From NCBI GenBank assembly GCA_016217725.1, contig JACRHB010000079.1:1-33296 (forward strand): a stretch of 33,296 bases of DNA, read 5' to 3'. The notes beneath the pieces were generated by a model that had not been told where the DNA came from, did no database searches, and saw only the letters and a list, made by a program, of their open reading frames with translations. Below, piece after piece: positions 1 to 11,637 of the stretch. The number at the start of each line of letters is the position of its first letter. The stretch's first letter is position 1. Made by a program: the position numbers and the translations under genes. This stretch comes from Nitrospirota bacterium. GTDB taxonomy: Bacteria; Nitrospirota; Thermodesulfovibrionia; UBA6902.

Positions 1-2
1 AG

Positions 3-142
3 CGCAGATTATCACAGATTTATTAAAAGCTTAACTGACTTTTGCCTTTCACCTTTTGGGTGAATATACAATATGTGCCTATCTCATTTATATCATTGTC
101 TTTATCTGTGAAATCTGCGGATGTAATGCCGTTTTTAGGTTT
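3..142. repeat. Palindromic repeat, family B, copy 1
   Basis: The left arm (3-19, cgcagattatcacagat) pairs with the right arm (104-119, atctgtgaaatctgcg) apart from a one-base length difference. The right end runs into atgccgtttttaggttt (126-142). The same right end, with a similar arm, recurs at 25829-25844 and, inverted, near 33135. It is an intergenic dispersed repeat and no coding function is seen in it. The remaining upstream sequence, 143-220, shows nothing I recognise. Confidence 0.6.
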
Positions 143-220
143 ATATGTTTGCTGAAAAACCTTCAGCAGATGTAGCTCATCCCGCGTAAACAGACTCTTT
201 CAATATCTGAAATCATCTAT

Positions 221-242
221 TGATGTCAAAATGATGACATCA
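221..242. promoter_or_regulatory. Dyad, candidate sigma-54 activator (enhancer) site
   Basis: TGATGTCA (221-228), a 6-bp spacer and TGACATCA (235-242) form a perfect 8+8 bp inverted repeat. Its centre is about 60 bp upstream of the -24 element at 293, which is a normal place for a bacterial enhancer-binding protein to bind. The symmetry is read directly; the role is inferred from position. Confidence 0.5.
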
Positions 243-292
243 TCCAAGCCCCCATCTTTCCCGCAACTGCCTGACAAATCAAATAATTTTAA

Positions 293-309
293 TTGGCATT
301 GAATTTGCT
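293..309 (+). promoter_or_regulatory. Sigma-54 (-24/-12) promoter
   Basis: TTGGCATTGAATTTGCT matches the RpoN consensus TTGGCACG-N4-TTGCW. The -24 GG (295-296) and -12 GC (307-308) are separated by exactly 10 bp. Transcription would begin near 320 and leave a leader of about 130 nt before the first gene at 453. It needs an ATP-dependent activator, for which the dyad at 221-242 is a candidate site. Sigma-54 control of exopolysaccharide loci is known (for example PrsR in PEP-CTERM systems). Confidence 0.6.
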
Positions 310-340
310 TTTTTATAAAAAGATAAATTTTAAAACAAAG

Positions 341-390
341 ACACAGAGGAAAATTACTGAATCCGTACTTCTTATATTTTTTCTCTGTGT
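341..390 (+). repeat. Leader hairpin
   Basis: acacagagga (341-350) is complementary to the ctctgtgt at 383-390 and its adjoining T run, apart from one extra G. The arms lie inside the predicted 5' leader of the first gene. A second short complementarity (gttcc 413-417 with ggaac 433-437) sits just before the ribosome-binding site aaggag (441-446). It may be a remnant of the same dispersed palindromic repeats or a leader structure. There is no T-run after the stem to suggest a terminator. Confidence 0.4.
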
Positions 391-452
391 TCTGTGGTGA
401 GAAAAATATTTTGGTTCCGGCGCGTCCGGGTTAGGAACAAAAGGAGAAAATA

Positions 453-2294
453 ATGCAGAAGCAGATGCTCCTTCATGATTATATACGCGTTATACTGCGC
501 CAGCGGTGGGTTATCCTCTGCTTTTTCAGCATATTTGTTACGGCTGTATTTATCGGCTCCATCAAGCAGACGCCTGTATACAGGGCTGTCTCAATCCTTT
601 TGATAGAGCCCATAAGTCCCAGGGTTATCTCGGTTCAGGAGGTCACCCCGATCAATACGGGGGATTCCTATGCTTACAAAGACTACTATCAGACACAGTA
701 TAAGCTGATAACCGGCAAAGAAGTCTTGAGGAGCGTGTCCGGGCTTCTCGGACCGGAAGGCAAAAATCCCGAAAGGGACAAATATTCCGCAGAGAAGCTT
801 ATAAAAATGATAAAGGTGTCGCCCGTAAAAAACAGTCAGCTTGTAGAGATCGGCGTTGAAGACACAGATGCCGGGACCGCTGCAAAAATAGCCAATTCGG
901 TTGCGGAAGAATATATCCGGCAGAACCTCGAGAGAAACGTGAAGGCCTCCAACAGCGCCGCGGAATGGCTTTCAAAAAAAATAGAAGAACAAAGACAAAA
1001 ATTAAAAGACGCCGAGGCGGCACTGCAGGAATACAGAGCCAGGTATAACATCAACATACTGCCTCAGGAAAAGGGAGAAAGCGCTGCGGAAGACATAAAG
1101 GCTCAATATGCGCAGCTTCAGGCCTTGTTTGCAAACTACTCCCAGCGCTACACGGAGGAGCACCCCAAGCTGGTCGAGCTTAAGGCGCAGATAAGCTCAC
1201 TGAAGAATAAGATCCACGGGCTGGAAGATTCCGATAAGGGGAATCAGGCGCTTGAATACAGGGTCCTTGAAAGGGAGATGCAATCCAACAAGCGTATGTA
1301 TGAGCTCCTGATGGAGCGTTTAAAGGAGATCGACCTGTCAAGCACCTTGAACGTCAATAACATCAGCGTTGTCGAGAGGGCGGAAGCGCCGGCAAAACCC
1401 ATACGTCCCGACCTGAAATTAAATACGCTTATCGCAGTGGTCCTGGGCTTAATAATCGGCGTAGGCTTCGGTTTTTTTGTCGACCGCCTCGACTCTACCA
1501 TAAAATCGCCGCAGGACGTGGAGCAGGTTCTCGAGTCCCGTTTTCTCGGAGGGATTCCGGGAGAGAAGGGCAAGGATGAGCGTAAGAAAGGCATGATGCT
1601 TCATATCCAGCCGCTGGCGACGTTTTCAGAGGCCTACAGGACGATCCGCACGGAGCTCATCAATGCGTTATTAAAAGACGGCCTTTCAAGCGTGCTGATA
1701 ACGAGCGCGGAGCCTAAGGCCGGCAAGACGATGACCTCCGCAAACATCTCAATCGCCCTGGCCCAAACCGGGAGCAAGGTCCTGCTTATAGACGGCGACT
1801 TGAGAAAACCCCAGATCCATAAGATCTTCAACGTGGACCGGAAATCGGGCTTGGCGGATTATCTGACGGAAGGCTCAAACCTCTCTCAACTTATAAAGGA
1901 CACCGAGGTTGAAAACTTAAAGGTCATAACCGCCGGCAAACCGCCTGTCAATCCTTCGGAGCTCATAAGCTCCGGAGCGATGAAAGAGCTGTTCAATTAC
2001 GTAAAACAGAGCTTTGACTTTATCCTTATCGATTCCTCCCCAGTCGCAAGCGTGACGGATGCCGTCATTATCGCGGATATGGTTGACGCCTCAGTCCTCG
2101 TTGTAAGGAGCGGCAAGGCCTTTATCCCCACCGTGACAATGGTAAAAGAGAAGCTGGAAAATTCCAATTCAAAATTATTGGGAACCATCCTTAATGATCT
2201 GAGCACTTATAACGATAATTATTATTCTTACAGGTACTATCGTTACTATGGAGAAGAAATGAAAAAAAGGAGGGTTAAGAGTAGGACTTCTTAA
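453..2294 (+). CDS. Polysaccharide co-polymerase / tyrosine autokinase fusion (Wzz-Wzc type)
   Basis: The protein (613 aa) controls chain length and probably export through cycles of tyrosine autophosphorylation at the inner membrane. The N-terminal Wzz domain has a first membrane segment at about residues 18-37, a long periplasmic part with a coiled coil (about 160-300), and a second membrane segment at about 325-345 preceded by the PxxP-type PAKPIRP. The cytoplasmic BY-kinase domain follows, with a Walker A loop in AEPKAGKT (about 419-426), Walker A' VLLIDGDLRKP (about 443-453) and Walker B FILIDSS (about 522-528). The C-terminal tail carries a cluster of eight tyrosines within about 15 residues, the usual autophosphorylation site. 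The Walker A loop has KA where most BY-kinases have GE, but GKT is kept. The ribosome-binding site aaggag is 6 nt before the ATG. It is the first gene of the locus and is likely driven by the sigma-54 promoter at 293-309. Confidence 0.93.
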   Translation: MQKQMLLHDYIRVILRQRWVILCFFSIFVTAVFIGSIKQTPVYRAVSILLIEPISPRVISVQEVTPINTGDSYAYKDYYQTQYKLITGKEVLRSVSGLLGPEGKNPERDKYSAEKLIKMIKVSPVKNSQLVEIGVEDTDAGTAAKIANSVAEEYIRQNLERNVKASNSAAEWLSKKIEEQRQKLKDAEAALQEYRARYNINILPQEKGESAAEDIKAQYAQLQALFANYSQRYTEEHPKLVELKAQISSLKNKIHGLEDSDKGNQALEYRVLEREMQSNKRMYELLMERLKEIDLSSTLNVNNISVVERAEAPAKPIRPDLKLNTLIAVVLGLIIGVGFGFFVDRLDSTIKSPQDVEQVLESRFLGGIPGEKGKDERKKGMMLHIQPLATFSEAYRTIRTELINALLKDGLSSVLITSAEPKAGKTMTSANISIALAQTGSKVLLIDGDLRKPQIHKIFNVDRKSGLADYLTEGSNLSQLIKDTEVENLKVITAGKPPVNPSELISSGAMKELFNYVKQSFDFILIDSSPVASVTDAVIIADMVDASVLVVRSGKAFIPTVTMVKEKLENSNSKLLGTILNDLSTYNDNYYSYRYYRYYGEEMKKRRVKSRTS

Positions 2295-2300
2295 CATGAA

Positions 2301-4184
2301 ATGCTCAGAGAATCTGCAATATCCAGGACTAATGATTTTTGCAGCAGGCTGATCGAATCCGGTATTTATTTCCTGATCTTTTTCACCCCCGTTGCGTACG
2401 GCGCCGTCCAGCCGTGGGCCGTCGCTGTTTTTGAAGTGACCGCAGCCGTAACAGCGCTGTTGTGGATCTTTAAAATATTCTTGAAGCGCAGGCTCAAGCT
2501 TATCCTTAATCCTGCAATAGCTGCAGCCTTTTTTTTCATCCCGTATGTCTGCATGCAGTTTGCCTTCCCGCTGAATAACGTGGACGGGAATAGCTCAGGC
2601 CGTGGAGCTTTCGGCTCCGTTTATCCCTGGGCCACCAAGACCGAGCTCCTGAAGGTTGTCGCTTATGCCATGATCTTTTTAGCAGTTACATGCACTGTAA
2701 GAACGAGAAGGCAGATTGTCAGAATATTGTCGGCGGTAACGGCGGCGGGCTTTATAACGGGCCTTTCTTTTTTAATGCGCTATTTCAGACTGGAGGCGCC
2801 GGGCAGCCTCGTAAACCCCGACCACCTGTCATGCTACCTGGGACTGATCATACCTGCATCGCTTGGACTTCTCTTTATGCCTTCGCAGGACCTTTCCATT
2901 TCAACGATCCGGGCCAAGCGCTTTCTGATTTTTACCTGTGTAATCGTTATGAGCGCCTCCCTGTTTCTCACCATGTCGCGAGGCGGCATGCTCAGCTTTA
3001 TATCTTCTTTTGTATTTATGGCGATCCTGGCCCGGAAGCGGGGCCTTGTCGCGGGAAGGGGATGGATTTTATCTGCGGCAATATTTATCGCCGCCACTGT
3101 CGCATGGCTGGGCGCCACGCCCGTTATCGAGAGGATAACATCCGTAAAGGCTGAGGTTGCTTCGCTCTATTTCGGCGGCAGGCTTCCCATATGGCAGGGC
3201 GCCGTGAATATTATAAAAGACTATCCGCTGTTCGGTTCGGGGCTCGGCACTTTCAACTACGTTTTCCCGGGGTATCAGCCCGCCTCGATTATGGACAAGC
3301 ATTATACCTATGCCCACAGCGATTTTTTAGAGCTCCTGTCGGAAACCGGCGTAACGGGCTTTACGTTATCCGTAATTTTCGGTCTGCTCTTTGCAGCCTG
3401 GCTGTTCCGTCGTTTTCAGATACGCGGCGACCCGTCCGTCCTGTGCCTCTCCGTCGGATTTTTCGGCTCCGCGGCGCACATATTTTTCCATTCATTCGTT
3501 GATTTCAGCATGCACATCCCCGCCGTCGCCATTTTAGTCACGATCCTTCTGGCGCTGTTCATCGTTACCCTTAATCTGAAGCGGAACACCGTATTGGCGG
3601 AAAACGTCGCCAGCCGCATATCCGATGGAAAACGGCGTATCGCACTTAACGGCTTTTGTCTTGCCGCTGCGGCATTTGCCGTTTTGTATATCATTGCATC
3701 CGTCAAGCCCGCTCTTGCCGAGCGTTACGCGCGGACGTCGGATCCGTCGAAGGCCGAAGGGACCCTTGTCAAGGCCGTTGACCTCGACCCGGGCAACGCA
3801 AAATACCATTATCAGCTCGGCAAGCTGTATTCGACACGGCCTGAGAAATATGCTCATGTGCAGGATATGCTTCATGAGCTCGGAAAGGCCGTTGAGCTCA
3901 ATCCGACCAACGGCAAATACCGCCAAAGTCTCGCGTGGACTTACGGCCAATTGTCCGACCTGCCGGAGCCGTCGTCCTTCACATATTCCCTGTCAACTGA
4001 GAAGTGCAGGGAATTGGCGCATAGGGAATTTCAAAAGGCAATTCAGCTGGAGCCTAATAACTCCTACCGATACCGGGCCTACGGGATCTGGCTGTCAGCC
4101 CATCCTTCAGAGGAAAACAAATCTCAATACGAGCAGACCGTCGCCTTAATGAATGAGGGGAAGGGGAGGACGGGAATTAAATGA
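2301..4184 (+). CDS. O-antigen ligase/polymerase-like membrane protein with C-terminal TPRs (Wzy/WaaL family)
   Basis: This 627-aa protein has about ten or more hydrophobic segments in its first 450 residues. It shows the O-antigen ligase (Wzy_C) pattern: an SRGG motif after a membrane segment (about residue 226) and a periplasmic loop with GSGLGTF followed by AHSDFLELLSETG (about 310-355). After the last membrane segment (about 455-470), a roughly 150-residue tail contains TPR-like units with typical DPGNAKYHYQLGKLY, NPTNGKYR and EPNNSYRYRAYG repeats, likely periplasmic. It either polymerises repeat units or ligates glycan; the TPR form is common in exopolysaccharide loci. The start is fixed by an in-frame TAA three codons upstream. 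The best Shine-Dalgarno (aggagg, 2268-2273) is rather far, so translation is probably coupled to the kinase gene. Confidence 0.85.
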   Translation: MLRESAISRTNDFCSRLIESGIYFLIFFTPVAYGAVQPWAVAVFEVTAAVTALLWIFKIFLKRRLKLILNPAIAAAFFFIPYVCMQFAFPLNNVDGNSSGRGAFGSVYPWATKTELLKVVAYAMIFLAVTCTVRTRRQIVRILSAVTAAGFITGLSFLMRYFRLEAPGSLVNPDHLSCYLGLIIPASLGLLFMPSQDLSISTIRAKRFLIFTCVIVMSASLFLTMSRGGMLSFISSFVFMAILARKRGLVAGRGWILSAAIFIAATVAWLGATPVIERITSVKAEVASLYFGGRLPIWQGAVNIIKDYPLFGSGLGTFNYVFPGYQPASIMDKHYTYAHSDFLELLSETGVTGFTLSVIFGLLFAAWLFRRFQIRGDPSVLCLSVGFFGSAAHIFFHSFVDFSMHIPAVAILVTILLALFIVTLNLKRNTVLAENVASRISDGKRRIALNGFCLAAAAFAVLYIIASVKPALAERYARTSDPSKAEGTLVKAVDLDPGNAKYHYQLGKLYSTRPEKYAHVQDMLHELGKAVELNPTNGKYRQSLAWTYGQLSDLPEPSSFTYSLSTEKCRELAHREFQKAIQLEPNNSYRYRAYGIWLSAHPSEENKSQYEQTVALMNEGKGRTGIK

Positions 4185-4663
4185 ACTGGTACGTTTTATA
4201 TACTAAACCGGGATGTGAAGACTCCGCAGCGCGTCTGATCAATAATATAGGCATTGAAACCTTCAGTCCCAAGATTAAAACAACCAGATACAGGAGAGGC
4301 GGTTTTAACGATATCATAGAGCCGCTCTTCCCGTCTTATATCTTTGCCTTTTTTGACGCGGAAAGACAGAGCCGCGCGCTCAAGTACACAAGGGGCGTAA
4401 GGTATATAATCGGGAAAGAAAACCCCTCGAGGGTCTTCCCCGAGATAATAGACGCCATAAAGGAGAGAATGAACGGAGACATCGTCACGCCGGTCCGGGA
4501 TAATTTCAGCAATGGAGACAATGTCTTGATAACGTGCGGCCCTTTCAAAGATTTCCACGGTATTTTTGAAAGATATATCCCCGGAAAAGAAAGGGCGATG
4601 GTTCTGCTTGAGGCCCTGCAATGCAGGCTGAACATATGTGACGGGTCAATCAAAAAGGCTTAG
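4181..4663 (+). CDS. NusG/RfaH-like transcription elongation factor (UpxY/LoaP type)
   Basis: This 160-aa protein has the NGN domain opening MNWYVLYTKPGCEDSAA that is characteristic of NusG paralogues. The NGN domain covers about residues 1-100, and a C-terminal KOW segment (about 108-135, GDNVLITCGPFKDFHGIF) follows. Specialised paralogues of this kind (RfaH, LoaP, UpxY) bind elongating RNA polymerase and let it read through pauses and terminators in long polysaccharide operons. Housekeeping nusG normally sits with secE and ribosomal genes, so the context here argues for a specialised paralogue. Its ATG overlaps the previous stop by 4 bp (ATGA), with ggagga 10 nt upstream. It is followed by a 180-bp gap holding a hairpin and an ops-like sequence, its likely loading site. 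Confidence 0.88.
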   Translation: MNWYVLYTKPGCEDSAARLINNIGIETFSPKIKTTRYRRGGFNDIIEPLFPSYIFAFFDAERQSRALKYTRGVRYIIGKENPSRVFPEIIDAIKERMNGDIVTPVRDNFSNGDNVLITCGPFKDFHGIFERYIPGKERAMVLLEALQCRLNICDGSIKKA

Positions 4664-4675
4664 ACGTTTTTAACG

Positions 4676-4687
4676 CTTAACGTTAAG
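4676..4687. repeat. Perfect 12-bp palindrome cttaacgttaag
   Basis: This self-complementary sequence lies 13 bp after the NusG-like stop codon. It is also enclosed by a short cgctt/aagcg pair (4674-4678 and 4691-4695). It could be a DNA-binding site or part of an RNA fold. Function is unknown. Confidence 0.35.
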
Positions 4688-4774
4688 AAAAAGCGAGCCG
4701 TCTTCGGGTTGACCGACATAACGTCACTTCAGGCATTTTTTAATGTCTGTGCGCATGATATATTTCTTAATCGG

Positions 4775-4795
4775 TCCTGTCATAAAATGACAGGA
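4775..4795 (+). promoter_or_regulatory. Leader hairpin before the ops-like site
   Basis: tcctgtcat (4775-4783) and atgacagga (4787-4795) form a perfect 9-bp stem with a 3-nt loop. No T-run follows, so it is not an ordinary intrinsic terminator. It could be a pause hairpin or an RNA recognition element. LoaP, a NusG paralogue, is known to need a leader RNA hairpin. Confidence 0.5.
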
Positions 4796-4798
4796 AAC

Positions 4799-4810
4799 GG
4801 CGGCAGCCTG
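4799..4810 (+). promoter_or_regulatory. ops-like element (candidate loading site for the NusG/RfaH-like factor)
   Basis: GGCGGCAGCCTG agrees at 10 of 12 positions with the E. coli ops sequence GGCGGTAGCGTG that recruits RfaH. It lies directly after the perfect hairpin and 34 bp before the first sugar-nucleotide gene. The substitution T6 to C affects a base that RfaH reads, so a diverged factor would be needed. GGCGGCAG alone also occurs by chance inside coding sequence near 3174 and 32290, so the position is the stronger argument. Confidence 0.4.
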
Positions 4811-4843
4811 CCTTGAAGGCGTCTTGAAGCGACTTAAATCAAG

Positions 4844-5713
4844 ATGAGGATTCTGATATTCGGCATTACAGGCATGTTGGGTCATGTCCTTTGGCTGGAG
4901 CTTAAGAAAGCTCACGAGGCCTTCGGCGCCGTGCGCGGTCCCAAGGAAAGGCTGAATATTTACGGCGCCGTTTATAAGAGCGACGCCGCCCATATTATCG
5001 ATAATACCGACGTATTTCATGAAGCGGCAATCGATAAAGCCGTGGACGTCTCGGAGCCCGAGGTGATAATAAACTGCATCGGCATTATAAAACAGGTCCC
5101 TGCCGCGCGCGACCCCGTTATTGCCATCGCCGTTAATTCGTTATTCCCGCACGTGCTCGCAAAAAAATGCAGTGAAAAAGGGATCCGCCTGATCCATATA
5201 AGCACCGACTGCGTCTTTTCCGGGAAAAAGGGCGGCTACGTTGAAACGGACCTGCCGGACGCCGAGGACCTGTACGGCCGCACTAAACTTCTTGGAGAAG
5301 TAACGGGTCCGAAATGTCTGACGCTCCGCACCTCCCTTATAGGACGCGAGCTGTCGGGAGCAAACGGGCTTCTTGAATGGTTTTTATCTCAAACCGGCAA
5401 GCGTGTTAACGGATACCAAAAGGCGATATTTTCAGGATTGACCACATACGCCATGTCAAAAGTTATGCGGGAGCTCGTCGAAAAACATCAGGCCCTTGAG
5501 GGATTGTATCACGTCTCGAGCGAGCCCCTTGCAAAGTATGACCTGCTCCACGGGCTGAAACGGAGGCTTTCACTGAACGTTGATCTCGTCCCGGACCAAA
5601 GCTGCGTCGTCGATCGAAGTCTTGATTCGACCAGATTCAGAGAAGCGACCGGCGCCGTCATCCCGTCATGGGATGAAATGCTCGAGGAGCTTGCGGCAAG
5701 GATAAGGCAATAA
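4844..5713 (+). CDS. RmlD-like NAD(P)-dependent sugar-nucleotide C4-reductase (UDP-L-FucNAc/L-QuiNAc branch)
   Basis: This 289-aa short-chain dehydrogenase/reductase has an N-terminal Rossmann fold (GITGMLG, residues 7-13) and the STDCVFSGKKGGY segment typical of dTDP-4-dehydrorhamnose reductases. Its catalytic Y144-x3-K148 lies in LYGRTK. RmlD normally works with RmlA, RmlB and RmlC, which are absent. The next two genes are instead of the CapE and CapG/WbjD types, so the likely substrate is the UDP-2-acetamido-2,6-dideoxy-4-hexulose made by the dehydratase. It lacks the extra cupin domain of CapF-type reductases (about 370 aa). This makes it closer to the WbvR type used for UDP-L-QuiNAc. No strong ribosome-binding site precedes the ATG. 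Confidence 0.8.
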   Translation: MRILIFGITGMLGHVLWLELKKAHEAFGAVRGPKERLNIYGAVYKSDAAHIIDNTDVFHEAAIDKAVDVSEPEVIINCIGIIKQVPAARDPVIAIAVNSLFPHVLAKKCSEKGIRLIHISTDCVFSGKKGGYVETDLPDAEDLYGRTKLLGEVTGPKCLTLRTSLIGRELSGANGLLEWFLSQTGKRVNGYQKAIFSGLTTYAMSKVMRELVEKHQALEGLYHVSSEPLAKYDLLHGLKRRLSLNVDLVPDQSCVVDRSLDSTRFREATGAVIPSWDEMLEELAARIRQ

Positions 5714-5733: not shown

Positions 5734-6795
5734 ATGATTTTTAAAGGCAAGAGGATTTTGATAACCGGAGGCACGGGCTCTCTCGGCAGAAAGCTCGTAA
5801 CGAGAATTCTGAGCGGCGAAAACGGCGTTCCCGCCGGGGTAAGGGTCTTTTCACGGGACGAAGCAAAGCAGCATCAGATGCGGCTGGAATACAAAAAATT
5901 AAAATCCGCCACAGATGAAATCATTTACAGAAATCTCCCTGAGGCGCTGGAATTTCAGATCGGGGACGTCCGCGACTTAAAGTCCGTTGCGCGGGCCTTG
6001 AAAGACGTCGATATAGTGATAAACGCCGCCGCGCTCAAACAGGTCCCGACGTGCGAATATTATCCCTATGAAGCGGTCAAGACAAATATCATGGGCGCAT
6101 ACAATATAGCGGCGGCTGTCGCTGAGCTGAAGACCCCGGTGGAGACGGTTGTAGGCGTGTCCACCGATAAGGCCTGCAAGCCTGTAAACGTTATGGGCAT
6201 GACAAAGGCGATCCAGGAGCGTGTTTTTATCGAGGCCAACATGCTGTGCCGGGACACCCGTTTCATATGCGTAAGATACGGCAACGTATTGGCGTCGCGC
6301 GGCTCGATCATGCCTTTATTCCATGATCAGATAAGGAGAGGCGGTCCCCTTACGATAACCTCCGGAGAGATGACCAGGTTCCTGCTCAGTCTCGAGGACG
6401 CAGTGGCTGCGATAATCGCAGCCGTAAGAACAGCCCAACAGGGTGAAACATTTGTGCCGAAAGCGCCTTCGGTCAGGATCACCGATGTTGCGGACGTGCT
6501 GATAGGCGGGAGGAAGATAGAAAAGAGGATCGTCGGCGTCAGGCCCGGAGAAAAAACCCATGAAGTGCTTATTTCAGAGGAAGAATGCCTGCGCACGGTT
6601 GATTACGGGGAGTATTATTCCATACAGCCCATATTGCCCGAATTGCGCAGTGTCAAGATCAAGAAACCCGTCTTGACAAAAGAATATTCTTCTATGGATA
6701 ATCTGCTGAGCAAAAAAGAGATCTTTGCTTTATTAAAAAAGAAAAAATTATTGGTAGACGACGTCAAGGGACCGACCGGAGAGATTCTGGCATGA
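5734..6795 (+). CDS. UDP-GlcNAc 4,6-dehydratase (5-inverting), CapE/WbjB/FnlA type
   Basis: This 353-aa SDR-family enzyme would convert UDP-GlcNAc to the 4-keto-6-deoxy-L-sugar nucleotide, the first step toward UDP-L-FucNAc or UDP-L-QuiNAc. The NAD-binding TGGTGSLG is at about residues 10-17. STDKA (143-147) is followed by M154-G-M-T-K158. The CapE/WbjB subfamily has Met where ordinary SDRs have the catalytic Tyr of YxxxK, so M154 is diagnostic rather than a defect. NAAALKQVP (about 97-105) is also typical of this subfamily. A ggaga ribosome-binding site lies about 9 nt before the ATG. It overlaps the next gene by 4 bp, which indicates co-translation. Confidence 0.87.
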   Translation: MIFKGKRILITGGTGSLGRKLVTRILSGENGVPAGVRVFSRDEAKQHQMRLEYKKLKSATDEIIYRNLPEALEFQIGDVRDLKSVARALKDVDIVINAAALKQVPTCEYYPYEAVKTNIMGAYNIAAAVAELKTPVETVVGVSTDKACKPVNVMGMTKAIQERVFIEANMLCRDTRFICVRYGNVLASRGSIMPLFHDQIRRGGPLTITSGEMTRFLLSLEDAVAAIIAAVRTAQQGETFVPKAPSVRITDVADVLIGGRKIEKRIVGVRPGEKTHEVLISEEECLRTVDYGEYYSIQPILPELRSVKIKKPVLTKEYSSMDNLLSKKEIFALLKKKKLLVDDVKGPTGEILA

Positions 6796-7883
6796 AGATA
6801 ATGACCGTCCTGGGCACCCGGCCCGAAATAATCCGCTTAAGCTTAATAATCAAGAAATTGTATAAGCATTGCAGCCACGTCCTGGTCCATACGGGACAGA
6901 ACTACGACGACAGCCTTAATAAGATCTTTTTCAGCGACCTGCAGCTCCCCGGGCCCGATTTCCACCTCGGCGTAAAAGCCGGGACGTTTGCCGGGCAAAT
7001 AGGAAAGCTGTTCATCGAATTCGAGAAAGTAATGCTGAAGGTCAAGCCGGATAAGATACTCATTTTAGGGGATACCAACAGCGGCCTGGTAAGCATTGCA
7101 GCCAGGCGGATGGGGGTTCCCGTTTACCACATGGAGGCCGGCAACAGATGCTTTGACGACAGAGTGCCGGAGGAAATAAACCGCAGGGTCATCGACCATT
7201 CAAGCAGCGTCCTTTTGCCTTACACGCACAACGGCAAGGAGAACCTTCTGAGAGAAGGCGTGGACCTGCGTAGAATTTACGTAACAGGCAATCCGATTTT
7301 TGAGGTCCTTAACGCCTGCGGCGAAAAAATAGAGGCAAGCGATATCCATAACAGGTTGAAATTACAACCGAAGAAATACTTCCTCGCCACCATGCACCGG
7401 GAGGAGAACGTCGACATTAAGTCCCGTCTTTCAAACATCTTGACTTCGCTTAATGCGCTTCAGGGAAAATATAAGCTGCCGGTAATATGCAGCCTGCATC
7501 CGAGAACGAAAAAAAGGATAAAGGCGTTCAACCTCGCCCCGGAGAACAAGGACGTGCGTTTCCTTGCGCCCCTCGGCTTTTCCGATTTCATCGCCCTTGA
7601 AAAAAAGGCTTTGTGCGTCATTACCGACAGCGGGACGGTGCAGGAGGAATGCTGCATTCTCAAAGTCCCCAACGTAACGGTGAGGGATACGACCGAAAGA
7701 CCGGAGACCCTGGAGGTCGGGAGCAACATCATAACGGGAAATGATCCGGAGGATATTTTGAATTGCGTTGAGCTGGCCCTCTCGGAAACAACGGAGTGGG
7801 AGATACCCGGGGAATATCTTATAAAGAACGTCTCTTCTACAGTAGTGAAAATAGTCCTGAGTTTTAAATATTCCCCTCTTTGA
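6792..7883 (+). CDS. UDP-N-acetyl-hexosamine 2-epimerase, WbjD/FnlC/CapG type
   Basis: This 363-aa non-hydrolysing 2-epimerase (GT-B fold) inverts C2 of the reduced UDP-6-deoxy sugar to finish UDP-L-FucNAc or UDP-L-QuiNAc. LGTRPEIIRLS is at the N terminus and HTGQNYDDSLNKIFF follows. HMEAGNRCFDDRVPEEINRR (about 113-132) has the CFD-RVPEEINR form of the WbjD/FnlC branch; WecB has a different sequence here. TDSGTVQEE (about 278-286) matches the UDP-binding loop. The 4-bp overlap with the dehydratase and the adjacent reductase complete a three-enzyme set. The last codons and the stop (7881-7883) lie in a C-rich palindrome, so the FKYSPL end is repeat-encoded. Confidence 0.9.
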   Translation: MKIMTVLGTRPEIIRLSLIIKKLYKHCSHVLVHTGQNYDDSLNKIFFSDLQLPGPDFHLGVKAGTFAGQIGKLFIEFEKVMLKVKPDKILILGDTNSGLVSIAARRMGVPVYHMEAGNRCFDDRVPEEINRRVIDHSSSVLLPYTHNGKENLLREGVDLRRIYVTGNPIFEVLNACGEKIEASDIHNRLKLQPKKYFLATMHREENVDIKSRLSNILTSLNALQGKYKLPVICSLHPRTKKRIKAFNLAPENKDVRFLAPLGFSDFIALEKKALCVITDSGTVQEECCILKVPNVTVRDTTERPETLEVGSNIITGNDPEDILNCVELALSETTEWEIPGEYLIKNVSSTVVKIVLSFKYSPL

Positions 7884-7976: not shown

Positions 7977-8030
7977 TGATTACCACCCGTAACTGAATGA
8001 TTACGGTTTGATCGAATCTTCACGTTGACC

Positions 8031-9677
8031 ATGCTGCAAGCTCTACGCAGAAATGTTATTGCCGTCGTCACCTTCCTGCTGATCGCCTTAACTGCGTTTC
8101 TCTCCGGCAGGGCGATATTGAACAACCCCGGCATGAGCGTCAGCGGATGGATTTCCATAATTGCGCCTGCCGCTGCGGTATGCCTGGCCGTCGCCTTCAT
8201 AACAATGAACGTGCAGGCAGGGTCCGACCTTTCCGCATTGTTCAGCTTTTCCCGGCCCGGGATCAATAAGAAGACTTTACTTATAACCGCCGTCCCGGCT
8301 TCAGCCCTGGGCCTCCTGATTGTTTTAAATCCGTTTGATTTCATCATGCCCCTCTTTATAACTCTCAGCGGGGTCTTGTTTTCATTGTCGGTTTATATGC
8401 TTTTGAACCATAAGTCGCTCGACGCCGTAGGACTGCTTATGATCTCGCTTCCTTTTCTGACTTATGTAGAATACCAGACCGTGCGATGGAACGAAGGCTT
8501 CGGCTCTGATTGGATAACCATAAAGACGGCAATTATCATACTCTTTTCGATAATCTGGCTTATAGCCGATAAAATGCCCCGGGCCGCGTCTAAATTCAAT
8601 GCGCTTGTTTTGCTGTTTGTCCTCACGGTGTTTTGCTCCGCCCTTTTTTCATCCGACGTCGTTTTCAGCATGCAGCGGTGGCTGTTTGAAATAGTTTATC
8701 CGGTGATATTTTATTTCATCGCCTTAAACAGCATAAGCCGTGAAGAAGACACGCGGAAGTTTAAAAGTTATTTTTTGGCCGCTATTTTTGTCAACGTCAT
8801 ATTGGTCTTATATTATTTCTTAAAATACGGCGGATGGGACGTGTTAGGCGAATACGTCCTGAACGTGAGTTTTGCAGACGGCGTTCTTGTTGCAAACGTT
8901 TTAATAATTGCGATGCCGCTTGTTATCGCATCCCTTGTAACGGAACAGAAAAGGGGACTAAGGCTGCTGTATTACGCAATGCTTGCGTTAGGGCTGGCGG
9001 GCCTTGTCATGTCCTTTGCAAGAACGGCGCAGTTGAGTATGGCAATCGGACTTTCAGCCTTTGTATTCAACAAAAAAACGAGAAAGTATCTGATGTTTCT
9101 TCTAATCGCCTGCATTCTCCTTATCGCCTTCAATTCGGAAATATTAACTCCGTATTTGAGCAAGTATGAAGGGTTGACGTTTGAGGGCCTGGTCCACGAA
9201 TCATCTATGGAAAAGCGATATGAAGGATGGAAAGCGGCCCTGGATATGTTCAAAGACCACCCGGTAACGGGCGTCGGGATAGGCGGATATGTGCGGGAAT
9301 ATGCAAAATATGCGCCTGAATACTATGCCGAATACGCCCGTGGCTACGTCTCAATGATCTCAGCGCATAACATTTATCTCACTTATCTTGCCGAAACCGG
9401 GCTTTTGGGGGCCCTGCCGTTTTTGCTGATGCTTTCAACCATCACGGTCAAGGCCTTTCAGGCGGTCAGGCGCGGGGGAAAGGACAGCGTATTTAAGCAC
9501 TCCTTATTTATCTCCGTCCTGATATTTTCAATCAATAATCTTACCGACGGGATAACGTTCGCCTACGTTAAAGAGATAGACAAAGGAATGGCTTTCTGGA
9601 GTATCGCGGCCCTCATAGTGAGCCGTGAGCTGATCGAAAAAAATAAAGGCGCGCAAAATGTTAGACAAAATATATGA
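8031..9677 (+). CDS. O-antigen ligase/polymerase-family membrane protein (second Wzy/WaaL-like protein)
   Basis: This is a roughly 548-aa integral membrane protein with a dozen or so hydrophobic segments. The Wzy_C/O-antigen ligase signature is present: MSFARTAQL after a membrane segment (about residue 327) and a large periplasmic loop with GVGIGGYVREYAKYAPE, then SAHNIYLTYLAETGLLG (about 440-460) before a further membrane helix. It would use undecaprenyl-linked glycan at the periplasmic face, either ligating it to lipid A-core or polymerising it. It sits between the sugar-nucleotide genes and the ABC exporter. Because ABC-exported glycans need a ligase and not a polymerase, ligase is slightly favoured. 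An in-frame TTG at 8025 is possible, but the ATG at 8031 was chosen; neither has a clear ribosome-binding site. It overlaps the next gene by 20 bp. Confidence 0.8.
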   Translation: MLQALRRNVIAVVTFLLIALTAFLSGRAILNNPGMSVSGWISIIAPAAAVCLAVAFITMNVQAGSDLSALFSFSRPGINKKTLLITAVPASALGLLIVLNPFDFIMPLFITLSGVLFSLSVYMLLNHKSLDAVGLLMISLPFLTYVEYQTVRWNEGFGSDWITIKTAIIILFSIIWLIADKMPRAASKFNALVLLFVLTVFCSALFSSDVVFSMQRWLFEIVYPVIFYFIALNSISREEDTRKFKSYFLAAIFVNVILVLYYFLKYGGWDVLGEYVLNVSFADGVLVANVLIIAMPLVIASLVTEQKRGLRLLYYAMLALGLAGLVMSFARTAQLSMAIGLSAFVFNKKTRKYLMFLLIACILLIAFNSEILTPYLSKYEGLTFEGLVHESSMEKRYEGWKAALDMFKDHPVTGVGIGGYVREYAKYAPEYYAEYARGYVSMISAHNIYLTYLAETGLLGALPFLLMLSTITVKAFQAVRRGGKDSVFKHSLFISVLIFSINNLTDGITFAYVKEIDKGMAFWSIAALIVSRELIEKNKGAQNVRQNI

Positions 9678-10440
9678 GCTTGTAAGATATAAAGAGCTGC
9701 TCCTTAACATCACGCTGCGTGAGCTCAAGGTCAGGTATAAGCAGTCCGCGCTCGGCATATTCTGGGCCGTGCTCCAGCCGCTTTCGATGACGATAATATT
9801 TACCGTGGTATTTTCCCGTCTTGTAAAAATTCCGAGTGACGGGATCCCCTATCCGTTATTTTCTTACGCCGGGCTCCTGCCCTGGACTTTTTTAGCCACC
9901 TCATTGTCTTTTGCCATACCCAGCCTCGTCTCCAATTCCAATCTCCTGACAAAAATATATTTTCCCAGGGAGATATTCCCTATAGCTTCAATATTGGCGG
10001 CGTTTGTGGATTTCCTTATCGCGGCGGTAATTTTTTCAGCCGTATTAATTTTATATAAAGTCCGTCTTACCCCGAATATTTTTTATATAATGCCCCTGCT
10101 GCTCATACAAACGCTGCTGATCCTGGCGGTCTCATTATTCGCTTCGGCATTTAACGTTTACTATCGAGACGTAAAATATGCGCTGCCGTTCGTCATCCAG
10201 CTCTGGATGTATCTCAGCCCCGTGATTTACCCGGTGAGCTCCGTCCCTGAAAGGCTCAGGTCGATATATATGCTGAACCCGATGGCTTCGGTCATAGACG
10301 GATACAGGAGGACGCTGCTTTTAGGCCGCCCGCCTGACTTTTACTATCTCGGCCTGGCGGCGGTCGTCACGCTCATCATGCTGCTTTTATCCTATAAATA
10401 CTTCAAGAGCGTTGAGACGTCTTTTGCAGACAGGATCTGA
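9658..10440 (+). CDS. wzm: ABC-2 type polysaccharide exporter permease (Wzm)
   Basis: This 260-aa inner-membrane protein has the usual Wzm/KpsM/TagG layout: an amphipathic N terminus with ELKVRYKQSALGIFWAVLQP, then six hydrophobic segments. Other family hallmarks are PLFSYAGLLPWTFLA (about residues 65-79), the SNSNLLTKIYFPREIFP stretch (about 95-111), YRDVKYALPFVIQLWMYLSPVIYP, and a C-terminal NPMASVIDGYRR. With the ATPase that starts one base after its stop codon, it moves completed, lipid-linked polysaccharide across the inner membrane. The start lies 20 bp inside the previous gene, with an aaagg ribosome-binding site. Confidence 0.92.
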   Translation: MLDKIYELVRYKELLLNITLRELKVRYKQSALGIFWAVLQPLSMTIIFTVVFSRLVKIPSDGIPYPLFSYAGLLPWTFLATSLSFAIPSLVSNSNLLTKIYFPREIFPIASILAAFVDFLIAAVIFSAVLILYKVRLTPNIFYIMPLLLIQTLLILAVSLFASAFNVYYRDVKYALPFVIQLWMYLSPVIYPVSSVPERLRSIYMLNPMASVIDGYRRTLLLGRPPDFYYLGLAAVVTLIMLLLSYKYFKSVETSFADRI

Positions 10441-11637
10441 ATGAACGCCCCGGCAATAGAGCTGAACGCCGTCTCGAAGCAATATAGACTCGGCGAAAAC
10501 GGCTACCGCTCTCTAAGGGAGGATATCGCGGAGCTCTTTAGAAGGCGCCGTCACGAGCCACGGCTCTTCTGGGCGCTCAGGGATGTTTCCTTCGCGGTGG
10601 ACCGCGGCGAGGCCGTAGGCATCATCGGGCCCAACGGCGCGGGCAAGAGCACTATCCTTAAACTCCTTTCAAGGGTCACGAAGGCGACTTCAGGCGCTGT
10701 AAAAATAGAAGGGAGCGTCGGGTCCCTGCTCGAGCTTTCGGCGGGCTTTCACCCCGAGCTTACCGGCCGTGAGAATATTTACCTTTACGGGTCCATATTA
10801 GGCATGAAAAAAAGCCTGATAGATAAAAAATATGCGGAGATCGTAGAGTTCTCCGGGCTGGATCAATTCATTGATACGCCCGTCAAGAGGTATTCGTCCG
10901 GGATGTATGCGCGCCTGGGGTTTTCGGTATCCGCGCATCTTGATCCGGACGTCCTGCTGGTGGATGAAGTGCTCTCGGTGGGAGACTATGCGTTTCAGGA
11001 TAAATGCATTCAAAAGATGAAAGCTTACAGGGCTTCCGGCAAGACCGTCATATACGTGTCCCACAATCTTGATTCGGTGAGAAGCCTGTGCGGAAGGGCG
11101 ATCCTCCTTAAGGAAGGACGGGTGGGTTACGACGGAGAAGTGGAGAAAGCGATCTGTGAATATTATATGCATTCCTCTCAGGGACAGAGAGCAAGGCAGG
11201 ATCAAAAAGGGGCTTTCGAGATACTTGACAGGAAGCTCATCGATTCCCGGGGCAGGGCGTGCGTGATCGCGGATTCGGGTGAGAGGGTCCGCTTTGAGCT
11301 GACGATGAAGACGCAAGAAGAGATAAATGAGGCTTATTACGCCGTATTCATAAGACGCTCCGACGGCTTCGTGGTCTTTGACACAAGCTCGGACCTTTTA
11401 AACGGAATAAGATACGGTCATGGGAGAGCTGAGAAGCTTTCATTGAAATATGAGCTCTCAATTAATTTGCTGAAAGGCACGTATACCCTGGGCTGTAATA
11501 TTTTCGGCTCCCTCCGCGACGGCCCCGTTGAATGTCTTTTTTATGAGGACAATATCTTCGCGTTCACCGTAAAGGATAATATCTCCCACCAGGGGATCGT
11601 CAACATGAATGCAAAATGCTCCGTTGACGCATTCTGA
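10441..11637 (+). CDS. wzt: ABC polysaccharide exporter ATPase with C-terminal glycan-recognition domain (Wzt)
   Basis: This is a 398-aa ATPase. Walker A is GPNGAGKST (about residues 62-70), the signature YSSGM (about 149-153), Walker B VLLVDEVLSVGD (about 170-181), and the H-loop VIYVSHN. The ATPase ends near residue 245. A separate beta-rich domain of about 145 residues follows, the position and size of the Wzt C-terminal domain (PF14524-like). In the E. coli O8/O9a systems this domain binds the modified non-reducing end of the finished chain before export. This suggests the glycan here also carries a terminal cap. The two FkbM methyltransferases further down are possible sources, though no WbdD-like terminator is visible. 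Confidence 0.92.
   Translation: MNAPAIELNAVSKQYRLGENGYRSLREDIAELFRRRRHEPRLFWALRDVSFAVDRGEAVGIIGPNGAGKSTILKLLSRVTKATSGAVKIEGSVGSLLELSAGFHPELTGRENIYLYGSILGMKKSLIDKKYAEIVEFSGLDQFIDTPVKRYSSGMYARLGFSVSAHLDPDVLLVDEVLSVGDYAFQDKCIQKMKAYRASGKTVIYVSHNLDSVRSLCGRAILLKEGRVGYDGEVEKAICEYYMHSSQGQRARQDQKGAFEILDRKLIDSRGRACVIADSGERVRFELTMKTQEEINEAYYAVFIRRSDGFVVFDTSSDLLNGIRYGHGRAEKLSLKYELSINLLKGTYTLGCNIFGSLRDGPVECLFYEDNIFAFTVKDNISHQGIVNMNAKCSVDAF

What the first reader, a model, noticed from the sequence alone, without database searches (positions are those of the whole stretch)
4181..4843. NusG/RfaH-like factor followed by its own ops-like leader, ahead of a 28-kb operon
The NusG paralogue is the third gene, not the first as usual for UpxY. 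It is followed by the only long gap in the first 7.8 kb. That gap contains a perfect 9-bp hairpin (4775-4795) and, 3 bp later, GGCGGCAGCCTG (4799-4810), which matches the E. coli ops site at 10 of 12 positions. The layout suggests a two-stage relay: the front module makes the factor, and the factor then licenses elongation through the sugar-nucleotide, export and glycosyltransferase genes. The leader seems to combine a LoaP-like RNA hairpin with an RfaH-like DNA site. I know of no description of this arrangement.
Basis: partly seen in the sequence, partly recalled or inferred. Interest (0 to 1): 0.75.

Follow-up and report, generated by a model that had tools for sequence, protein, structure and literature searches.

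The report
RfaH-like gene with neighbouring ops hairpin signal
A Nitrospirota-like bacterium carries, inside a long sugar-coat gene cluster, a gene for an RfaH-type transcription helper and, just after it, a copy of the signal (ops with an RNA hairpin) at which E. coli RfaH boards RNA polymerase; about half of the related genes examined keep this pairing, so such a helper can be encoded next to its own likely boarding site.

Summary
In detail: a perfect 9-bp stem-loop (4775-4795), AAC, then GGCGGCAGCCTG (4799-4810), 135 bp after an RfaH-like gene. Of 33 RfaH-like loci, 18 carry GGCGGYAGCNYG beside the gene on its strand (15 after, 3 before); 0 of 14 other NusG-family loci do. In those 18 a stem usually ends 3 nt before the 12-mer (mean 5.2 bp, shuffles 2.35, 0 of 300 as high), with varying sequence. 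Of 13 non-adjacent sites chosen by sequence alone, 10 have such a stem. Of 20 new elements in other genomes of the phylum, 10 have an RfaH-like gene nearby on the same strand. Hairpin plus ops is already known as JUMPstart (Rfam RF01707) in gamma-Proteobacteria, so 'no description' is wrong for the element. What looks new is its conservation beside an rfaH-like gene in Nitrospirota, with free stem sequence and a mostly AAY spacer; published views hold that ops recognition arose late and link cis-encoded RfaH homologues to ops-independent recruitment. Best reading: an RfaH-type factor loads at its adjacent JUMPstart-like leader. Open: hairpin function, read-through or local promoter, fold-switching.

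The parts
453..2294 (+). Wzc/Eps-type chain-length regulator with tyrosine-kinase-like ATPase domain; first ORF of 100 aa or more on the contig's + strand
   Evidence: Pfam PF13614, PF13807; TIGR01007 eps_fam 209 bits, above its cut-off of 108
2301..4184 (+). Wzy/O-antigen-ligase-like membrane protein with TPR repeats; overlaps the rfaH-like start by 4 bp
   Evidence: PF04932 E 7.6e-22
4181..4663 (+). RfaH-like NusG paralogue, 160 aa; equivalents of E. coli RfaH K10, T72, R73, E48, R138, I93 and F130 kept; H20, R23 and Q24 not
4756..4764 (+). extended -10-like TGATATATT, a possible local promoter (unproven)
   Evidence: not found by the simple -35/-10 scan
4775..4795 (+). perfect 9-bp hairpin, loop AAA; in relatives conserved as structure rather than sequence
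4796..4798 (+). 3-nt spacer AAC; AAY in 13 of 18 elements at rfaH-like genes and 15 of 20 new ones
4799..4812 (+). ops-like site GGCGGCAGCCTG plus CC; position 6 is C where most relatives have T
4844..5713 (+). RmlD-like NAD-dependent reductase, first gene after the element (33 nt on); no detectable Shine-Dalgarno
   Evidence: PF04321 E 4.8e-28
5734..6795 (+). PseB/FnlA/CapD-type UDP-sugar 4,6-dehydratase (below the curated cut-offs of PseB and FnlA)
   Evidence: PF02719 E 5.2e-90
6792..7883 (+). WecB-type UDP-GlcNAc 2-epimerase
   Evidence: TIGR00236 289 bits, above cut-off
8025..9677 (+). Wzy/O-antigen-ligase-like membrane protein
   Evidence: PF04932 E 2.4e-22
9658..10440 (+). ABC-2 type polysaccharide export permease (Wzm-like)
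   Evidence: PF01061 E 1.8e-21
10441..11637 (+). polysaccharide export ATPase with Wzt C-terminal domain
   Evidence: PF00005, PF14524
11866..33154 (+). rest of the same-strand gene run to near the contig end; the first gene is a group-1 glycosyltransferase, the others were translated but not searched

Best explanation
4181-4843 is an RfaH-type module: a NusG paralogue encoded next to its own loading site. SHOWN by sequence: the protein is RfaH-like; the site is an ops-type pause sequence (GGCGGYAGCNYG) with a stem-loop whose base usually lies 3 nt (2-4) upstream; the pairing of such genes with such sites recurs across the group, and further copies of the site precede polysaccharide genes elsewhere in related genomes. 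INFERRED: RNA polymerase pauses when the RNA 3' end is at ops position 11; the displaced DNA strand shows G5 and the pyrimidine at position 6 to the factor; the factor loads, displaces NusG, blocks Rho, and stays on through the downstream genes. At that pause 14 nt of RNA (3-nt spacer plus ops 1-11) separate the stem from the RNA 3' end, so the stem would sit near the mouth of the RNA exit channel. The most likely role of the hairpin is to hold the polymerase at the site by resisting backtracking. Whether transcripts reach the site by read-through of the rfaH-like gene or from a promoter in the gap is not settled. Rough step confidences: factor acts at this site 0.8; hairpin selected as RNA structure 0.8; anti-backtracking role 0.35.
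For: Gene-site pairing: GGCGGYAGCNYG on the same strand beside the gene in 18 of 33 RfaH-like loci; the soft model R1, searched over the same loci, finds the same 18 and nothing else in them up to E 1. In the 30 whole-genome loci (101 kb) there are 16 same-strand and 0 opposite-strand sites; 0 in 14 other NusG-family loci (42 kb) and 0 in 32 Bacteroidota loci (455 kb). The exact 14-mer GGCGGTAGCYTGYC occurs in 14 of 30 genomes with an RfaH-like gene and 1 of 90 without (Fisher p 2.8e-9). Hairpin (G-U pairs allowed): mean stem 5.2 bp at a 3-nt spacer against 2.35 in shuffles, 0 of 300 as high (18 elements); 13 non-adjacent sites chosen by sequence only, 10 with a stem of at least 5 bp, 0 of 500 shuffles as high (two near-duplicate pairs among the 13). 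Stem sequences differ: 10 of 13 and 14 of 14 distinct arms. New genomes: 10 of 20 elements have an RfaH-like gene on the same strand, 8 of them with the element 80-206 bp after the profile match. Protein: equivalents of K10, T72, R73, E48, R138, I93 and F130 kept, no Rho-type IFG loop. Targets: 9 of 10 genes tested after cis elements are sugar-nucleotide or polysaccharide genes.
Against: Pocket residues H20, R23 and Q24 of E. coli RfaH are not kept in the window protein, and ops position 6, read base-specifically by E. coli RfaH, is C in the window. 15 of 33 RfaH-like loci have no adjacent site; two of them have one about 3.5 kb downstream, others only on another contig or none. Among genomes not used to build the model the R2-RfaH association is weaker: 3 of 14 against 2 of 90, p 0.017. 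The reversed 14-mer control also leans towards RfaH-positive genomes: 6 sites in 5 of 30 against 5 sites in 5 of 90. Two genomes have an element at E up to 1e-3 but only weak NusG-family hits; one of the two elements (L106) has no stem. Nine same-genus genomes lack the gene at E 1e-15. Four of the 18 elements have no stem of 5 bp at 2-4 nt. Pair counting on the model-fitted alignment was mixed: paired cells 46% (3 of 500 shuffles as high), covariation score 0.266 (2 of 500), but pairs with double changes and further pair types did not exceed shuffles (373 and 453 of 500), and a slide of -1 did as well or better on several measures. No experiment.
Confidence: 0.77

Rival explanations
1. Ordinary JUMPstart/RfaH acquired by horizontal transfer: the same gamma-Proteobacterial system moved into this group with its operons and has drifted; nothing mechanistic is new.
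For: Same layout (stem-loop, short spacer, ops) as RF01707; RfaH is the best NCBIfam model; patchy presence, 30 of 120 genomes, absent from 9 same-genus genomes.
Against: No RF01707 hit in window 4600-4900 up to E 10, nor in 9 loci (the window's own and 8 relatives) at the gathering score, where both E. coli leaders hit; hairpin sequence and spacer differ; the factor is encoded beside the site; E. coli RfaH is a long branch without starred support for its place, and elements also occur beside divergent RfaH-like genes in families labelled only 'same phylum'.
Confidence: 0.35
2. The hairpin is a protein-binding RNA element (LoaP-like) or a DNA operator, and the 12-mer is only a pause site; the factor reads the stem-loop rather than the non-template DNA.
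For: Stem conserved with fixed spacing; LoaP is reported to bind an RNA hairpin; H20/R23 pocket residues not kept.
Against: Stem and loop sequences vary while the ops core hardly does: in the 20 new elements found by the soft model, C3, G4, G5, A7, G8 and C9 are the same in 20 of 20, though the script that located the 12-mer allowed change at only some of these positions. An operator or specific RNA ligand would be expected to keep sequence.
Confidence: 0.12
3. The gap is mainly a promoter and leader for the downstream operon; the rfaH-like gene is a neighbour whose adjacency only reflects co-transfer, with the factor acting in trans.
For: GTTCA-N5-TGAACGCA block in 5 relatives, preceded by TATMTTA in 4; TTGACC-18-TATATT in L004; extended -10-like site in the window; non-adjacent element copies elsewhere in related genomes.
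Against: Compatible with, rather than opposed to, RfaH recruitment; in this genome the only R2 hit up to E 0.05 is beside the gene (53 of 608 first-look candidates were scored).
Confidence: 0.3
4. Chance or weak decay product: hairpin and 12-mer in this window are unrelated to the factor.
For: The 12-mer alone is at chance level in window and genome.
Against: Conservation of both parts and their spacing beside homologous genes.
Confidence: 0.03

Closest known systems
JUMPstart element (Rfam RF01707; Hobbs and Reeves 1994, title seen in a reference list only; Weinberg 2010 PMC2864571, passages)
   Same: Short stem-loop followed directly by ops, in front of polysaccharide genes
   Different: E. 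coli form has a 5-bp stem with conserved sequence and 1 nt before GGCGGUAGCGUG; here the stem reaches 9 bp with free sequence, the spacer is mostly AAY, ops mostly GGCGGYAGCCTGYC, and there is no RF01707 hit
E. coli RfaH with ops (Zuber 2018 PMC5995543, passages; Wang 2020 PMC7593976, abstract, passages and two sections)
   Same: Protein family, K10/T72/R73, autoinhibition residues, ops core C3 G4 G5 A7 G8
   Different: Encoded beside its likely site rather than alone; H20 and R23 not kept; position 6 is C in the window
Monomorphic RfaH homologues in or next to long operons, described as ops-independent (Tabilo-Agurto 2026 PMC13015549, abstract, passages and one section)
   Same: rfaH gene within or next to a long envelope-polysaccharide gene run
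   Different: Here an ops-type site recurs next to the gene, suggesting ops-dependent recruitment
UpxY of Bacteroides (PMC7819879 passages)
   Same: NusG paralogue inside a capsule operon
   Different: UpxY acts on a leader upstream of its own gene; the window protein scores below the UpxY cut-off; 32 Bacteroidota loci lack the 12-mer
LoaP (PMC12691694 passages)
   Same: NusG paralogue using a leader with an RNA hairpin
   Different: LoaP hairpin is UNCG-type and bound as RNA; here loop AAA and an ops-type site; score below the LoaP cut-off

Membership tests
RfaH (protein) | NCBIfam TIGR01955 equivalog cut-off (144.5 bits) | tested here: not met
   100.4 bits, but the best-scoring NCBIfam model
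RfaH (protein) | ops-contact residues K10 and R73 | tested here: met
   K9 and R71 of the window protein
RfaH (protein) | ops-pocket residues H20 and R23 | tested here: not met
   L and N in the window protein; variable in relatives
RfaH (protein) | Loss of Rho-contact loop I-F-G | tested here: met
   A-L-Q at the L145-I146-N147 columns
RfaH (protein) | Autoinhibition residues E48, I93, F130 (and R138, recalled) | tested here: met
   E, I, F (and R) in the window protein
RfaH (protein) | Alpha-helical autoinhibited C-terminal domain | tested here: inconclusive
   AlphaFold2: residues 104-160 under pLDDT 50 with 4 sequences; beta strands with 23 sequences, 19 of them from Bacteroidota
RfaH (protein) | Sequence-specific recruitment at ops | not testable with these tools
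   needs in vitro transcription
JUMPstart element | Stem-loop immediately followed by ops | tested here: met
   (ops 10 of 12 to the E. coli form in the window)
JUMPstart element | Match to RF01707 | tested here: not met
   no hit in 4600-4900 up to E 10; 0 of 9 loci (the window's own and 8 relatives) at the gathering score while both E. coli leaders hit
JUMPstart element | Lies ahead of polysaccharide genes | tested here: met
   window genes; 9 of 10 genes tested in relatives
UpxY | NF033644 cut-off (100 bits) | tested here: not met
   73.7 bits
LoaP | NF033641 cut-off (125 bits) | tested here: not met
   56.5 bits
LoaP | UNCG-type leader hairpin | tested here: not met
   loop AAA

The most novel reading that the evidence does not exclude
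A bipartite signal - a structure-only RNA hairpin set a fixed distance before ops - is an old part of RfaH recruitment rather than a gamma-Proteobacterial oddity, and ops-dependent loading was already in use by factors encoded beside their targets, before trans control evolved. The hairpin acts on the paused polymerase as a mechanical stop, and the base at ops position 6 (T or C) is matched by the factor's pocket (residue 20 is L or F in 5 of 5 proteins beside a C6 site and L in 1 of 21 beside a T6 site).
Probability: 0.3. Interest if true: 0.75.

Novelty: new variant of a known kind. Interest (0 to 1): 0.6.

Why it matters
Wang 2020 states that E. [quoted passage not shown] since then LoaP has been shown to use an RNA hairpin. 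Here many RfaH-like factors come with an identifiable ops-type site beside the gene, which makes their recruitment directly testable and bears on that order of events. The freely varying but position-fixed hairpin is comparative evidence that the stem-loop before ops is selected as structure, so its role at the ops pause can be asked.

Tried and rejected
Rejected: LoaP-like RNA recognition (loop and family score); UpxY membership (score, position); chance (controls). The model-fitted alignment A3 was a poor basis for pair counting, so a direct stem count against shuffles was used. AlphaFold2 did not settle the C-terminal fold. A scan for -10-like hexamers over 38 elements gave no common position. 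Base 6 against residue 20 is a lead only: the 5 C6 proteins form about 3 lineages. The genes tested after non-adjacent elements (10 proteins from 9 of the 20 fetched loci) and after cis elements (10 of the 15 loci with the element after the gene) were picked by hand; in L004 and L006 the gene tested follows a small ORF. Several weak R2 hits (L114, L115, L117, L118; E 0.0024-0.016) look like chance and are not counted as evidence.

Rows dropped before counts: one match (G055:C1) gave no locus; one opposite-strand 12-mer in L033; L119 (same site as L023) and L117 (no readable 12-mer) from the second set; 4 of the 24 new places were not fetched; L185 could not be parsed and is missing from the tree; L037, L040, L054-L056, L058 and L060-L066 are not in A6. 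The 18 elements were picked with a pattern that fixes most ops bases, so their invariance there is by construction.

Literature: searches. RfaH with Nitrospira found no paper; the main texts of PMC7593976, PMC7819879, PMC13015549 and PMC9247905 hold no word beginning 'Nitrospir' (the first look used a setting that could not have found it). The library is open-licence papers only, figures and supplements were not seen, so absence from print is not established.

Full report
WHAT IS THERE. The window is one whole contig, G000:C17, of a 2.77-Mb draft genome. ORFs on the + strand run from 453 to 33154. The third, 4181-4663, encodes a 160-aa NusG-family protein whose best curated model is RfaH, though below that model's cut-off. 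The same genome has a housekeeping NusG and a UpxY-like paralogue on other contigs. After the stop codon come 180 nt with a perfect 9-bp stem-loop (4775-4795), AAC, and GGCGGCAGCCTG (4799-4810), then 33 nt to an RmlD-like gene. Sugar-nucleotide, polymerase and export genes follow.

CHANCE IN THE WINDOW. Taken alone the 12-mer is weak: up to two mismatches to GGCGGTAGYNTG gives 9 sites, 10.2 expected. GGCGGYAGCNYG gives 8 sites in the whole genome against 10 for the reversed control. The window site has a 9-bp stem at 3 nt; the other seven have at most 4 bp at 2-4 nt.

CONSERVATION BESIDE THE GENE. RfaH-like genes at E up to 1e-15 occur in 30 of 120 genomes, own included, and not in the nine same-genus genomes; named relatives are Nitrospirae/Nitrospira assemblies. 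Of 33 loci examined (30 of the 31 places, plus L033-L035), 18 carry GGCGGYAGCNYG on the gene's strand nearby: 15 begin 59-193 nt after the stop codon and 3 begin 15-51 nt before the start of the protein match. A soft model finds the same 18. In the 30 whole-genome loci the count is 16 on the same strand and 0 on the opposite one; 14 other NusG-family loci have 0, and 32 Bacteroidota loci have 0. The 12-mer ends 21-82 nt before the next start codon in the 10 loci measured, of 15.

THE HAIRPIN. With the stem base fixed 3 nt before the 12-mer (G-U pairs allowed), the 18 elements average 5.2 bp against 2.35 in dinucleotide shuffles, none of 300 as high; at 0-2 nt there is no excess. Fourteen of 18 have at least 5 bp at 2-4 nt; four do not. 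Because a pairing model was used to find further sites, I repeated the test on 13 non-adjacent sites chosen by sequence alone: mean 5.15 bp, 10 of 13 with at least 5 bp, none of 500 shuffles as high. Two pairs of those 13 are near-duplicates, and the only one from a genome without an RfaH-like gene (G010) has no stem. Arms differ in sequence, 10 distinct of 13 and 14 distinct of 14; position 6 of ops is T in 30 and C in 8 of 38; the spacer is AAY in 28 of 38. The invariance of the other ops core bases in the 18 is partly by construction, since a pattern picked them. Pair counting on the model-fitted alignment was mixed: paired cells, double-change cells and covariation score exceeded nearly all shuffles (3, 1 and 2 of 500 as high), but two other measures did not, and sliding one arm by -1 did about as well, because the stem register varies there.

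GENOME-WIDE LINK. The exact 14-mer GGCGGTAGCYTGYC has 21 sites in 120 genomes (reversed control 11); 20 lie in 14 of the 30 genomes with an RfaH-like gene and 1 in the other 90, while the control has 6 sites in 5 of 30 and 5 sites in 5 of 90. The covariance model R2 hits at E up to 1e-3 in 19 of 30 against 2 of 90, but 16 of the 19 helped build it; outside those the figure is 3 of 14 against 2 of 90, p 0.017. The best out-of-sample test is the wider phylum: 36 of 295 genomes hit, own and earlier ones included. Of 20 new places fetched (of 24), 10 have an RfaH-like gene on the same strand within about 5 kb: 8 with the element 80-206 bp after the profile match, one just before the gene, one 2.7 kb after it; the other 10 have none in the stretch held, some cut by contig ends. 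Five of the ten belong to families listed only as same phylum, with more divergent proteins.

TARGETS. A sugar-nucleotide or polysaccharide gene was found in 9 of 10 genes tested after cis elements (the next gene in 8 loci, the first larger one in L004 and L006; no family for L011). Genes after non-adjacent elements include Wzy, an ABC-2 permease, flippases, epimerases, an aminotransferase, a glycosyltransferase, a B12-binding radical SAM protein and, in one genome, a phage-tail-sheath-like gene. In the window the rfaH-like gene has a strong Shine-Dalgarno and the first gene after the element has none; RfaH-controlled genes are reported to lack one (PMC7819879 passages), but some other window genes lack it too.

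THE PROTEIN. Equivalents of K10, T72 and R73 (ops contacts), E48, I93 and F130 (autoinhibition) and R138 are kept, the Rho-contact loop is absent, and H20, R23 and Q24 are not kept (roles from PMC5995543 and PMC7593976; R138 as a partner of E48 is recalled). Residue 20 is L or F in the five proteins beside a C6 site; beside T6 sites it is mostly R, M, S or N, with one L in 21. That is a lead, confounded by descent. AlphaFold2 was uninformative for the C-terminal domain with 4 sequences and gave beta strands with 23, mostly Bacteroidota.

MECHANISM. E. coli polymerase pauses with the RNA end at ops U11, in a state said to be biochemically distinct from hairpin-stabilised pauses (PMC11001881, passages); ops is a backtrack-stabilised pause (PMC6391919, passages), and G5 and T6 are read by RfaH on the non-template strand. 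The present elements keep the pyrimidine-G at 11-12 and the read bases, with T6 to C in the window; E. coli was tested with T6A, reported as a roughly threefold loss in vitro. By the spacing, 14 nt of RNA lie between stem and the U11 end, against 12 in the E. coli elements. I infer that the stem stands at the RNA exit and hinders backtracking; this is untested. Promoter evidence is mixed: five relatives share GTTCA-N5-TGAACGCA ending 39-46 nt before the 12-mer, preceded by TATMTTA in four; the window keeps only part of it and has an extended -10-like TGATATATT at 4756-4764.

AGAINST THE KNOWN. Hairpin plus ops is JUMPstart (RF01707; Weinberg 2010 reports a conserved stem-loop). The window element looks like it but does not score as one. 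The 2020 and 2026 analyses picture operon-borne relatives as having unknown or ops-independent recruitment. Recurrent ops-type sites beside such genes do not fit that picture simply, and that is the point of interest. I rate it a new variant of a known kind.

Noticed in passing
L111 (G020:C64), element near 1590 of the locus: A hairpin-plus-ops element (R2 E 9.8e-5) stands ahead of a gene with phage-tail-sheath domains, perhaps a contractile injection system operon, in a genome with only weak NusG-family hits to the window protein.
   Followed up: partly
L004, L006, L007, L033, L034, ending 39-46 nt before the 12-mer: Shared palindrome GTTCA-N5-TGAACGCA, preceded by a -10-like TATMTTA in four of the five. 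In L033 and L034 the next small ORF is a MarR_EPS regulator (TIGR04176, above cut-off), and similar frames by eye stand in the other three, so the palindrome may be that regulator's operator.
   Followed up: partly
G000:C56:3095-3493 (-): A UpxY-like NusG paralogue above its curated cut-off in the same genome; its targets were not looked at.
   Followed up: no
window 1-452: 452 nt at the contig start with no ORF of 100 aa or more and no R2 hit, possibly the true leader of the front genes.
   Followed up: no
window 4799-4810 and elements L033, L034, L180, L182, L189, L194, L196: ops position 6 is C rather than T in these 8 of 38 elements, including all but one of the six places fetched from the family labelled f28.
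   Followed up: partly
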